Below are positions 50,598 through 54,328 of a stretch of 64,000 nucleotides of DNA, one piece after another (the first letter of the stretch is position 1; the number at the start of each line of letters is the position of its first letter). The translations under genes were made by a program, and so were the position numbers. Source of the DNA: an uncultured Flavobacteriales bacterium (GTDB lineage Bacteria > Bacteroidota > Bacteroidia > Flavobacteriales_E > Vicingaceae); NCBI GenBank assembly GCA_905479915.1, contig CAJQOH010000028.1:1-64000 (forward strand), in the 5' to 3' direction. Under the pieces are notes generated by a model that worked only from the letters and a program-made list of their open reading frames with translations, had not been told where the DNA came from and made no database searches.

Positions 50598-51443
50598 ATG
50601 CCAACAATCGTTGAATTAGAAAAAACAGCAAGTCAAGTTAGAAGAGATATCGTTAGAATGGTTCATGCAGTAAGCTCAGGACATCCAGGAGGATCTTTAG
50701 GTTGTGCTGATTATTTAGTAGCCTTATATTTTGAGGTAATGAATCACAATCCATCAAATTTCAATATGGATGCAACTAATGAAGATATATTTTTCTTATC
50801 AAACGGTCACATTTCACCAGTTTTTTACAGCGTTTTAGCGCGTTCAGGATATTTTTCAGTTTCAGAGTTAGCAACATTTAGAAAATTAAACACTCGTTTA
50901 CAAGGTCACCCAACAACTCATGAAGGTTTAGAAGGAGTTAGAATTGCAAGTGGTTCTTTAGGACAAGGTTTATCTGTGGCAATTGGTGCTGCTGAAACAA
51001 AAAAATTAAACAACGATAATGGAATTGTTTTTACGCTTCATGGTGACGGTGAAATTCAAGAAGGACAAATATGGGAAGCAGCGATGTATGCGGCTCACAA
51101 CAAATTAGACAATCTTATTTCTACCATCGATTACAATCACAAACAAATTGATGGAGACATTAGTGATGTATTGGATTTAGGAGACATTAAAGCAAAATGG
51201 CAAGCTTTTGGATGGGACGTTATGGAAATGGACGGAAACAACATGCAAGAAGTGATTGATGGCTTAAATGAAGCTAAAACACACTTAGGTAAGGGAAAAC
51301 CCGTTATGATAATTATGAAAACTGAAATGGGACAAGGTGTTGACTATATGATGGGAACACACAAATGGCACGGAAACGCCCCTAATGATGAACAATTAGC
51401 TTCCGCTCTAGGTCAATTAGAAGAAACGCTTGGTGACTACTAA
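50598..51443 (+). CDS. tktN: Transketolase, N-terminal subunit
   Basis: 281 residues from ATG 50598, chosen because the longer ORF (50523) adds a non-conserved N-terminus. It carries the TPP-binding half: HPGGSLGCADYLVALYF, GSLGQGLSVAIG and the GDGEIQEGQIWEAAMYAAHNKLDN motif. It needs the C-terminal half at 53378 to act in the pentose phosphate pathway. Unusually, a four-helix-bundle gene and a vWA gene lie between the two halves. Confidence 0.92.
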   Translation: MPTIVELEKTASQVRRDIVRMVHAVSSGHPGGSLGCADYLVALYFEVMNHNPSNFNMDATNEDIFFLSNGHISPVFYSVLARSGYFSVSELATFRKLNTRLQGHPTTHEGLEGVRIASGSLGQGLSVAIGAAETKKLNNDNGIVFTLHGDGEIQEGQIWEAAMYAAHNKLDNLISTIDYNHKQIDGDISDVLDLGDIKAKWQAFGWDVMEMDGNNMQEVIDGLNEAKTHLGKGKPVMIIMKTEMGQGVDYMMGTHKWHGNAPNDEQLASALGQLEETLGDY

Positions 51444-51460
51444 AAAGTCTTCAAGTCCTC

Positions 51461-51889
51461 TAATCTACAAAGTCTTCAAAAAGAAAGAATAAAGAAAATA
51501 AAGATGAGTTCATTTAAAGATTTAACCGTTTACAAAAAGGCTTTCGCTTTAGCAATGGAAGTTTTTGAAATGACTAAAACTTTTCCGAAAGAAGAAAGGT
51601 ACTCTTTAATTGATCAGATAAGAAGATGCTCTCGTTCAGTTTGCTCCAACTTAGGGGAAGGATATAGAAAACGACAATATCCAGCTCATTTTGTAGCAAA
51701 AGTTTCAGATGCTGATATGGAAAATTCAGAAACTCAAGTTTGGCTGGACTTCTCATTAGCTTGTAAATATATTGACAAAGACACTTATAAAGATAAAACT
51801 GAAAAATCAATAGAAATAGGGCGTATGCTAAATCATATGATTAATAACCCTAAAAAATATAGTTAATTAATATTTGAAGACTGTAGACT
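51461..51889. repeat. Inverted repeat enclosing the four-helix-bundle gene
   Basis: TCTACAAAGTCTTCAA (51463-51478) upstream and TTGAAGACTGTAGA (51874-51887) downstream are complementary over 14 pairs with one 2-nt bulge (AA). The bases between comprise the whole four-helix-bundle gene with short flanks. A further AGTCTTCAA lies at 51445-51453. Intervening sequences of 23S rRNA that encode this protein family also have complementary ends (family knowledge). Confidence 0.65.
51504..51866 (+). CDS. Four-helix-bundle protein (23S rRNA IVS/S23-type)
   Basis: 120 residues of the TIGR02436-like four-helix bundle: FKDLTVYKKAFALAMEVFEMTKTFP, then LIDQIRRCSRSVCSNLGEGY, then ENSETQVWLDFSLACKYI. Family members are encoded in rRNA intervening sequences, and many are free-standing of unknown function. 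This one sits between the transketolase halves and inside a flanking inverted repeat, which suggests a mobile or inserted cassette. No catalytic residues. Confidence 0.92.
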   Translation: MSSFKDLTVYKKAFALAMEVFEMTKTFPKEERYSLIDQIRRCSRSVCSNLGEGYRKRQYPAHFVAKVSDADMENSETQVWLDFSLACKYIDKDTYKDKTEKSIEIGRMLNHMINNPKKYS

Positions 51890-51896
51890 GAATATT

Positions 51897-53288
51897 GTGA
51901 ACTTTTTTAAAAAACATATCAAACTTTTAAAACCTGCTTTAGTAGCTCTTACCCTACTACTTGCATTCAATTCTCACGCTCAAATTAAGCAGAAAACAAG
52001 AATCTTATTTGTTTTAGATGCTTCACAGAGTATGCTCGGGCAATGGAGTGGTGAACAAAAAATGAAGGTTGCCTCTCGTCTTTTAAGTAATTTAATGGAT
52101 AGTCTTAAATCCGTAGAAAACTTAGAAGTTGGCATGAGAGTTTATGGACATCAATTTTCTGTAGCTAATGGAGATCGGAGCTGTGAAGACACTAAATTAG
52201 AAGTTCCTTTTAATGGTCAAAGTGGTTATGAAAACATCAAAACAACTTTAGGCCAGCTTTACCCAAAAGGAACAACACCTATTGCCTATTCTTTAGAGCA
52301 AACAAAAAATGATTTTCCACCCTGTTCAAACTGTAGAAATATAATTATTCTTATTACGGATGGTATTGAAGAGTGTGATGGAGATCCTTGTGCAGTTGCA
52401 ATGGCTCTACAAAAAAACGGAGTTACACTTAAACCTTTTGTAATCGGGATGGGATTAGATTTAGAAGTGATAGATGCTTTTAAATGTATTGGAACATTTT
52501 ATGAAACAAAAGATGCTGAATCATTTAACAATGTTTTAAATGTAGTGATCTCTCAAGCCATGAACAACACCACAGTTCAAGTAAATCTATTGGATGCTGC
52601 TGGAGATCCTAGCGAAACTGATGTAAACATGACCTTCTACAACAGCCATTCTAAAGCCATAGCGTACAACTTTATCCATACGATGAACAACAGAGGTGTC
52701 CCAGACACTATCCCCTTAGATCCTGCCTTAAAATATGATTTAACAGTTCATACACTTCCTGAAATTAGCAAGGATAGCATTACGATTAAACCAGGTATTC
52801 ACAACATTATAGCTCTTGATGCACCACAAGGTTATTTAAAATTAGAAATGAATGGATTAAATGAATATGATGATCTGAAATGTATTGTAAGGCAAAAAGG
52901 AAAAATGAAAACACTTTACGTTCAAAATTTTGAAGAAACAACAAAGTACATTACTGGAGATTTTGATTTAGAAATTCTTACACTACCGAGAATGTACATA
53001 AACGATGTAAACATTAGACAAAGCCATACCACTAAGGTATTTATTCCTGAGCCAGGTATAGCTACCTTCTTCTTACCCGGAAGAGGCATAACAAGTATAT
53101 TTCTAGAAAACAACAATAAATTAGAATGGATTTACAACATTTCCCCACAAACAGATAGAGAAACTGTTGTATTTCAACCAGGTAGTTACAGGATTATTTA
53201 CAGAGGACTTAACGCCAAAAACGTTATTTATACAAAAGAAAAAAAGTTTACAGTAAAATCAGGAGCATCAACACAAGTTAAATTTTAA
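51897..53288 (+). CDS. Secreted vWA-domain protein, GTG start
   Basis: 463 residues from GTG 51897, signal peptide ending NSHAQ. The vWA domain (about 35-215) has the MIDAS D41-A-S43-Q-S45 (FVLDASQSM) and a later acidic loop (IILITDGIEECDGD). About eight cysteines and a C-terminal half of beta domains (IKPGIHNIIALDAPQGYLKLEMNG) suggest carbohydrate- or protein-binding repeats. Extracytoplasmic; partner unknown. Located within the transketolase locus. Confidence 0.85.
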   Translation: MNFFKKHIKLLKPALVALTLLLAFNSHAQIKQKTRILFVLDASQSMLGQWSGEQKMKVASRLLSNLMDSLKSVENLEVGMRVYGHQFSVANGDRSCEDTKLEVPFNGQSGYENIKTTLGQLYPKGTTPIAYSLEQTKNDFPPCSNCRNIIILITDGIEECDGDPCAVAMALQKNGVTLKPFVIGMGLDLEVIDAFKCIGTFYETKDAESFNNVLNVVISQAMNNTTVQVNLLDAAGDPSETDVNMTFYNSHSKAIAYNFIHTMNNRGVPDTIPLDPALKYDLTVHTLPEISKDSITIKPGIHNIIALDAPQGYLKLEMNGLNEYDDLKCIVRQKGKMKTLYVQNFEETTKYITGDFDLEILTLPRMYINDVNIRQSHTTKVFIPEPGIATFFLPGRGITSIFLENNNKLEWIYNISPQTDRETVVFQPGSYRIIYRGLNAKNVIYTKEKKFTVKSGASTQVKF

Positions 53289-53377: not shown

Positions 53378-54328
53378 ATGAAAGAATACACTTACACAGA
53401 AAAGAAAGACACTCGTTCTGGTTTTGGAGACGGTTTAACCGAATTAGGAAGAGAAAATGAGAATGTAGTCGCACTTTGTGCAGATCTTACAGGATCTTTA
53501 AAAATGAACGATTTTGAAAATGAAAACCCAGATCGTTTTTTCCAAGTTGGTATTGCTGAAGCAAATATGATTGGTATAGCTGCAGGAATGACCATTGGTG
53601 GTAAAATTCCTTTTACAGGAACTTTCGCTAACTTTTCAACCAGTAGAGTTTATGATCAAATCAGACAATCAGTAGCCTACTCTGGTAAGAACGTAAAAAT
53701 TTGTGCTTCACACGCTGGTTTAACACTAGGTGAAGATGGTGCTACTCACCAAGTGCTAGAAGACATAGGTATGATGAAAATGCTTCCTGGGATGACAGTT
53801 ATCAACCCTTGTGATTACAACCAAACAAAAGCAGCTACAAAAGCTATTGCAGATCATAAAGGGCCTGTTTATTTAAGGTTTGGAAGACCAAAAGTACCTG
53901 TTTTCATGAACGAGCCATTCGTTATCGGAAAAGCGATCAACCTACAAGAAGGTGCTGATGTTAGTATTTTCGCAACAGGCCATTTAGTTTGGGAAGCATT
54001 AGAAGCACACAAAACATTAGCTGACAAAGGAATCAATGCGGAAATAATAAATATCCACACGATTAAACCTTTAGACGTAAAAGCAGTCTTAGATTCAGCA
54101 AACAAAACTAAATGTGTTGTAACTGCTGAAGAACATATGAGAAATGGCGGTTTAGGTGATAGTATTGCTCAAGTAATAACACACAATAATCCAATGCCAA
54201 TAGAATATGTTGCTGTAAACGATAGTTTTGGAGAGAGTGGAACTCCAGATCAATTAATGGAAAAATATGGTTTAAATGCCGAAGCAATTGTAAAAGCTGC
54301 AGAAAAAGCTATTGCTCGTAAAGGATAA
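53378..54328 (+). CDS. tktC: Transketolase, C-terminal subunit
   Basis: 316 residues with the pyrimidine-binding and C-terminal domains: ALCADLTGSLKMNDF, FQVGIAEANMIGIAAGMTIGGKIPF (the catalytic Glu region), SHAGLTLGEDGATHQ and LRFGRPKVPVF. It complements the N-terminal subunit at 50598. Ends before a terminator (54356). Confidence 0.92.
   Translation: MKEYTYTEKKDTRSGFGDGLTELGRENENVVALCADLTGSLKMNDFENENPDRFFQVGIAEANMIGIAAGMTIGGKIPFTGTFANFSTSRVYDQIRQSVAYSGKNVKICASHAGLTLGEDGATHQVLEDIGMMKMLPGMTVINPCDYNQTKAATKAIADHKGPVYLRFGRPKVPVFMNEPFVIGKAINLQEGADVSIFATGHLVWEALEAHKTLADKGINAEIINIHTIKPLDVKAVLDSANKTKCVVTAEEHMRNGGLGDSIAQVITHNNPMPIEYVAVNDSFGESGTPDQLMEKYGLNAEAIVKAAEKAIARKG

What the first reader, a model, noticed from the sequence alone, without database searches (positions are those of the whole stretch)
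51445..51889. Four-helix-bundle gene enclosed by an inverted repeat, inside a transketolase locus
Complementary segments at 51463-51478 and 51874-51887 (14 pairs, one bulge) enclose the whole four-helix-bundle gene. In 23S rRNA intervening sequences this same protein family is encoded between ends that pair. Here the cassette lies between the two halves of transketolase. This suggests that free-standing four-helix-bundle genes can move as stem-bounded units into protein operons.
Basis: partly seen in the sequence, partly recalled or inferred. Interest (0 to 1): 0.62.

Follow-up and report, generated by a model that had tools for sequence, protein, structure and literature searches.

The report
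Stem-bounded mobile cassettes inside operons
A small gene family known from extra pieces in bacterial ribosomal RNA also travels as a roughly 455-base cassette that lands between genes of ordinary operons across many phyla, enclosed by matching seven-base repeat arrays, and this window holds one worn copy.

Summary
The complementary arms exist at the stated place: 51464-51480 and 51873-51887, 15 pairs with a 2-nt bulge. In this copy alone they are only marginally above chance. Comparison makes the case. I examined 257 short-class PF05635 loci from this genus, family and phylum and from many other phyla. About 62-65% have such arms, against 1.5% of 682 ordinary genes and 2-4% of swapped flanks.

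The arms are degenerate tandem heptamers (AG every 7 nt in the 5' arm, CT every 7 nt in the 3' arm). Their sequence differs from site to site, yet they stay complementary within each locus. Empty sites exist: the sdhA|sdhB gap is 5-30 nt in 22 genomes and 426-492 nt in 6. The same gap is re-invaded by unrelated copies, and close relatives sit at different sites with similar arms. Orthologues of the window's site in two other genera have strong arms.

Corrections: transketolase is naturally two genes, with a VWA gene also between them. The arms show no sense-strand RNA selection signal (G·U 120, A·C 117). The protein is under strong purifying selection. No held paper links this family to operons or heptamers. 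RNase III processing and the mode of movement remain inferred.

The parts
50598..51443 (+). upstream host gene: transketolase N-terminal half (separate gene)
   Evidence: PF00456, 173 bits; ends in its own stop codon in all 10 genomes in which it was found
51444..51480 (+). 5' arm: eroded heptamer array (AAAGTCTTCAAGTCCTCTAATCTACAAAGTCTTCAAA), starting at the base after the upstream stop codon; paired part 51464-51480
   Evidence: orthologues L138 and L179 carry stronger CAGTCTT-type arrays at the same place; in 126 loci the 5' arm starts a median of 0 nt from the upstream stop codon
51504..51866 (+). four-helix-bundle (23S_rRNA_IVP / S23-like) protein gene, 120 aa
   Evidence: PF05635 113.2 bits, TIGR02436 101.3 bits; dN/dS 0.05 against L044 and 0.11 against L179
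51873..51903 (+). 3' arm: heptamer array (TTTGAAGACTGTAGACTGAATATTGTGAAC...), paired part 51873-51887
   Evidence: pairs with the 5' arm in the minimum-energy and centroid RNA folds
51897..53288 (+). downstream host gene: von Willebrand factor A domain protein; likely GTG start inside the end of the 3' array
   Evidence: PF00092, 46.9 bits; lies next to transketolase-N in relatives without the cassette
53378..54328 (+). host gene: transketolase C-terminal half (separate gene)
   Evidence: PF02779 and PF02780

Best explanation
The feature is one copy of a mobile cassette of about 455 nt: 5' heptamer array, a gene for an IVP/S23-type four-helix-bundle protein, and a 3' heptamer array complementary to the first. 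SHOWN: arms and gene behave as one unit that is absent from empty sites; it sits in the gap between a stop codon and the next start codon of co-directional genes, nearly always in the sense orientation; arm sequence changes quickly but complementarity is kept; the protein is conserved at each site. INFERRED, in falling confidence: (1) the cassette is read from the host operon's transcript, because it nearly always lies in the sense orientation; (2) in that transcript the arms fold into a stem that RNase III may cut, as in 23S rRNA intervening sequences, freeing the loop and leaving two mRNA pieces with intact cistrons, which would explain why only such gaps are tolerated; (3) the arms are kept complementary by DNA-level copying of one array into the other (slippage plus template switching), not by selection on RNA pairing; (4) the protein recognises the AG/CT comb that recurs every 7 nt and is needed for movement or for tolerating the insert. 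The enzyme that moves the cassette is unknown.
For: Arms: 61.5% of 179 phylum loci score 12 or more against 1.9% of swapped flanks; 65% against 3.8% in 78 loci of many phyla; 1.5% of 682 other genes. Heptamers: lag-7 identity 0.40/0.38 against about 0.30 at other lags; comb motif 1.87-1.95 bits against a null maximum of 1.37-1.49 bits, found independently in both arms. Unit: sdhA|sdhB gap 5-30 nt in 22 genomes and 426-492 nt in 6; median span 455 nt, 5' arm a median of 0 nt from the upstream stop. Mobility: 160 sites for 250 loci; related copies at different sites and unrelated copies at one site; arms are alike between different sites mainly when the proteins are at least 65% identical (32-36% of pairs, against 1-7%). 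Coordinated change: own-pair sum 1774 against a maximum of 1567 in 5000 permutations within sites. Orientation: 130 sense and 8 antisense of 145 loci with confident neighbours. Constraint: dN/dS 0.03-0.13 in 23 of 24 orthologue pairs, the other being mispaired. In Coxiella the 23S rRNA IVS is 428 nt, carries this gene, has a 28-bp terminal stem and heptamer repeats before the ORF, and is cut out by RNase III (PMC4990558).
Against: The window's own arms are marginal when taken alone. Stem mismatches show no sense-strand bias (G.U 120, A.C 117), so selection for an RNA stem is not supported. About 35-40% of loci lack clear arms at this threshold. One cyanobacterial copy (L352) has direct, not inverted, arrays. 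No transposase or target-site duplication was found, and no expression data exist here. Strong purifying selection at fixed sites also fits a domesticated host function.
Confidence: 0.72

Rival explanations
1. The genes are ordinary host genes, for instance operon-specific RNA-binding regulators, that spread by conventional gene transfer; the flanking hairpins are attenuators or mRNA-stability elements selected at the RNA level.
For: Strong purifying selection at each fixed site and long vertical retention at sdhA|sdhB, hmgA|HPPD and the transketolase site. Nearly exclusive sense orientation.
Against: No excess of G.U over A.C in the stems. The same gap is occupied by unrelated copies. Empty gaps carry no hairpin. 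The unrelated nature of the host operons (sdh, suf, trp, sco, cas, transfer genes) does not suggest regulation of one process.
Confidence: 0.15
2. Heptamer hairpins were there first, made by polymerase slippage, and the gene merely inserts into their loops.
For: Gene-less heptamer hairpins exist, for example the 25-bp palindrome at the transketolase site of G012, and short heptamer repeats are known in several genomes (PMC4692102, PMC4679880).
Against: Twenty-two empty sdhA|sdhB gaps are only 5-30 nt long and hold no array. Similar arms accompany similar proteins at different sites. Intergenic heptamer arrays are rare in 860 kb of two genomes (5 stretches, two of them flanking a broken copy of the gene).
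Confidence: 0.08
3. This copy's inverted repeat is a chance match beside an ordinary gene.
For: Score 11.0 is reached by 3 of 54 window genes, this one included; RNA fold z-score 0.36.
Against: Same-site orthologues have scores of 12.0, 16.5 and 25.5 with related heptamers, and the family-wide excess is about 30-fold.
Confidence: 0.05

Closest known systems
23S rRNA intervening sequences (IVS) with an S23/IVP ORF, e.g. Coxiella burnetii (PMC4990558)
   Same: Same protein family, similar length (428 nt against a median of 455 nt here), terminal complementary arms around the ORF, heptamer direct repeats before the ORF in Coxiella.
   Different: Here the host is a protein operon, not rRNA; arms are heptamer arrays on both sides; sense orientation in the gap between cistrons; cutting by RNase III is not shown.
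Heptameric tandem repeats: cyanobacterial STRRs, TAACTGA repeats of Beggiatoaceae, GGGAATC repeats of Xanthomonas (PMC2670836, PMC4679880, PMC4692102)
   Same: Seven-base units, intergenic, often in operons, in Xanthomonas often paired as inverted repeats.
   Different: Those papers do not link the repeats to the four-helix-bundle gene; here the arrays are the two ends of a cassette that carries it.
MITEs and insertion sequences
   Same: Short, patchy, inverted ends, present and absent at one site.
   Different: End sequence is not shared between copies, no transposase inside, insertion confined to gaps between cistrons and oriented.
Diversity-generating retroelement accessory protein Avd (bAvd)
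   Same: Homologous four-helix-bundle fold family.
   Different: Score 36.7 against the curated cut-off of 80 for Avd; no reverse transcriptase seen among the predicted ORFs around the cassette.

Membership tests
PF05635 / TIGR02436 four-helix-bundle protein family | profile score above the curated cut-off | tested here: met
   113.2 bits (cut-off 33.8) and 101.3 bits (cut-off 24)
23S rRNA intervening sequence (IVS) element | ORF of the IVP/S23 family | tested here: met
23S rRNA intervening sequence (IVS) element | complementary ends enclosing the ORF | tested here: met
   15 pairs in the window, marginal alone; strong in orthologues and family-wide
23S rRNA intervening sequence (IVS) element | located inside an rRNA gene | tested here: not met
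   between transketolase-N and a VWA gene; no rRNA hit around the cassette nor in 20 loci of other phyla
23S rRNA intervening sequence (IVS) element | excision of the transcript by RNase III | not testable with these tools
   needs RNA work; shown for Coxiella in PMC4990558
Diversity-generating retroelement Avd | score above the curated cut-off NF033474 | tested here: not met
   36.7 against 80 bits
MITE / insertion sequence | terminal inverted repeat sequence shared between copies | tested here: not met
   arms differ between sites even within one genome; cross-pairs at the same site score near background at sdhA|sdhB (8.4 against 13.8)
MITE / insertion sequence | target-site duplication | tested here: inconclusive
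   empty gaps are 5-30 nt and too diverged to call a duplication
Cyanobacterial STRR-type heptamer repeats | tandem units of 7 nt | tested here: met
   lag 7, 14 and 21 peaks and comb motif; perfect arrays on Nostoc plasmids; window copy itself eroded

The most novel reading that the evidence does not exclude
A class of mobile element, found in many bacterial phyla and in archaeal assemblies, whose only gene is an IVP/S23 four-helix-bundle protein and whose ends are self-renewing inverted heptamer arrays with an AG/CT comb every 7 nt. It colonises gaps between cistrons in the sense orientation, and many 'orphan' bacterial heptamer repeats (STRRs, TAACTGA, intergenic hairpins) are its remains.
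Probability: 0.5. Interest if true: 0.88.

Novelty: new variant of a known kind. Interest (0 to 1): 0.76.

Why it matters
The S23/IVP family is widespread and has no known function, and bacterial heptamer repeats have had no explained origin. Linking the two turns both into one testable question: does this small protein bind and move, or license, heptamer-armed cassettes? It also means that many core operons (sdh, suf, trp, sco, cas, transketolase) carry an unnoticed insert that separates cistrons otherwise only a few bases apart, which should affect mRNA processing and translational coupling.

Tried and rejected
RNAduplex energies of the flanks: background too noisy because long interior loops are rewarded; replaced by strict local complementarity. 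Whole-cassette RNA folding: no excess stability (z 0.36). RNA-selection test by G.U against A.C: no signal (the tRNA control is small, 4 tRNAs, G.U 6 and A.C 0). Neighbour orientation by longest ORF: inflated exceptions through shadow ORFs at high G+C; redone with a composition filter. The search for related loci with the diverse alignment A1 failed; a closer subclass worked. Genome-wide search for gene-less heptamer hairpins: most intergenic hairpins are ordinary terminators, and of the gene-less gap sequences only some are better than shuffles. DNA alignment A3 is not used: its L179 slice was in the wrong orientation. Phage records: no relative of the L160 protein. Rfam: nothing relevant around the cassette. 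Neighbour names not tested by profile (e.g. hemL, hmgA, queA, ispD, nqr, thi) rest on reading the sequence; sdhA/B, HPPD, sufB/C, scoA/B and trpD/C were confirmed.

Full report
WHAT WAS CLAIMED.

THE OBSERVATION. The segments are there: 51464-51480 pairs with 51873-51887 over 15 positions with a 2-nt bulge. The gene inside, 51504-51866, belongs to PF05635 / TIGR02436. By itself the repeat is weak: score 11.0, p 0.03-0.04, reached by 3 of 54 window genes including this one, and the whole cassette RNA folds no better than shuffles, although its best and centroid folds contain the stem. The locus reads transketolase-N, cassette, VWA protein, transketolase-C; the N-half ends in its own stop codon in all 10 genomes in which it was found, with or without the cassette, so the cassette does not split a gene.

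THE SAME SITE ELSEWHERE. In the genus the cassette is at this site only in the window's genome and G001; other members have gene-less hairpins, some heptameric (a 25-bp palindrome in G012), or nothing. Two further genera of the family carry an orthologue here (76-78% protein identity to the window copy) with arms scoring 16.5 and 25.5 and plain CAGTCTT-type heptamers. The window's arms look like an eroded form of those.

THE FAMILY. The window's genome has eight PF05635 genes. One is a longer class (about 165-176 aa) kept at one conserved site in the genus, without arms (0 of 9). The short class lies between co-directional genes at many different sites and is flanked by arms whose sequence differs from site to site. 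Over 179 short-class loci from the phylum, 61.5% score 12 or more, against 1.9% of swapped flanks and none of 8 long-class loci. Over 78 relatives from many phyla, including Bacillota, Pseudomonadota, Planctomycetota, Acidobacteriota, candidate phyla and archaeal assemblies, 65% against 3.8%. Of 682 other genes in 860 kb of two genomes, 1.5% reach 12 and 0.1% reach 14. Twenty loci outside Bacteroidota were checked for rRNA and none lies in it.

THE ARMS. They are degenerate tandem heptamers: identity at lag 7 is 0.40 (5') and 0.38 (3') with peaks at 14 and 21, against about 0.30 at other lags. An unsupervised alignment of the units gives the same comb in both arms, AG every 7 nt in the 5' arm and CT every 7 nt in the 3' arm, above the null obtained by permuting columns. 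Perfect arrays occur on Nostoc plasmids, e.g. gggaaca repeats before the gene and tgttccc repeats after it. The 5' arm begins a median of 0 nt from the upstream stop codon, the 3' arm ends a median of 10 nt before the next ATG, and the span is 455 nt.

MOBILITY. At sdhA|sdhB, 31 genomes of the family give 22 short gaps (5-30 nt), six inserts of 426-492 nt and three gaps of 54-72 nt, for which a hairpin is at best marginal. Two of the inserts there (L184, L186) carry a protein only 32-41% identical to the others, so the gap was entered more than once. Copies of one lineage occur at different sites (L069 within the trpD|trpC clade; L014, L015 and L041 at three sites), and one gap can hold unrelated copies. 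In all, 250 loci fall in 160 distinct gaps. Arms of copies at different sites resemble each other mainly when the proteins are at least 65% identical, so the arms travel with the gene. Orientation is 130 sense to 8 antisense among 145 loci with confident neighbours. Named neighbours were confirmed by profile for sdhA, sdhB, HPPD, sufB, sufC, scoA, scoB, trpD and trpC; cyanobacterial plasmids show the gene between cas6 and cas4 and beside transfer genes.

HOW THE ARMS STAY COMPLEMENTARY. Within 37 sites with several copies, own arm pairs score 1774 in sum, above the maximum of 5000 permutations within sites (1567), so arms change together. Yet mismatches in 161 stems are G.U 120 and A.C 117. 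Selection for a stem in the sense RNA should favour G.U; none is seen. A DNA-level process such as slippage with template switching between the arrays is the simpler account; this is inference.

THE PROTEIN. Same-site orthologues have dN/dS of 0.03-0.13; the single high value (L059/L060) compares two different copies by mistake. The subclass profile matches solved structures 2gsc and 2rld. Strong constraint at each site, with up to 16 copies in a genome, suggests that each copy serves its own site or cassette; this is inference.

WHAT IS KNOWN. The 23S rRNA IVS of Coxiella carries this family, has a 28-bp terminal stem, heptamer repeats before the ORF, and is excised by RNase III (PMC4990558). 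The family is also reported in 16S and 23S rRNA insertions of CPR bacteria (PMC11270868) and is related to Avd (PMC10053308). Heptamer repeats without explanation are described in Beggiatoaceae, Cyanobacteria and Xanthomonas (PMC4679880, PMC2670836, PMC4692102). No held paper found in nine searches connects the gene family with heptamer arms or with protein operons; the library lacks most subscription journals, so priority is not certain.

VERDICT. Novelty: a new variant of a known kind (IVS-like element), with a fair chance of being a distinct class of mobile element.

Noticed in passing
L007, L017-L020, L029, L073-L075: A longer class (about 165-176 aa) of the same family is kept at one site, apparently queA|ispD by sequence reading, in most genus members, without arms or heptamers: a likely domesticated member and a useful negative control.
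   Followed up: partly
L083 (G012), just after the transketolase-N stop codon: Gene-less near-perfect 25-bp palindrome of heptamer-like units at the exact site of the window's cassette; possibly the scar of a lost cassette. Its units resemble the arms of L012 at another site in another species.
   Followed up: partly
L352, flanks of 1501-1860 (Pseudanabaena galeata plasmid pPg_01): Long heptamer arrays flank the gene as direct repeats (agctaaa before, agccaaa after), not inverted: an exception to the rule.
   Followed up: no
L348 and L352: The gene sits between cas6 and cas4 of CRISPR operons on plasmids of two cyanobacteria.
   Followed up: partly
L123 region: G001:C8:16022-16201 lies in L121: Stand-alone intergenic array with about a dozen ACTAACC units and no IVP gene within 10 kb, next to GGTTTTTAGTG-like units.
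   Followed up: no
G001:C8:7497-7932 (L067, L121): Two heptamer-periodic stretches about 300 nt apart flank a degenerate copy of the gene (one in-frame stop), a decaying cassette.
   Followed up: partly
L349 and L350: Two Nostoc plasmids with the same insertion differ in the number of 3' heptamer units (one unit more in L350), direct evidence of array slippage.
   Followed up: partly
window 51888-51903: The likely GTG start codon of the VWA gene lies within the end of the 3' heptamer array, so the insert may supply the start region of the downstream gene.
   Followed up: no
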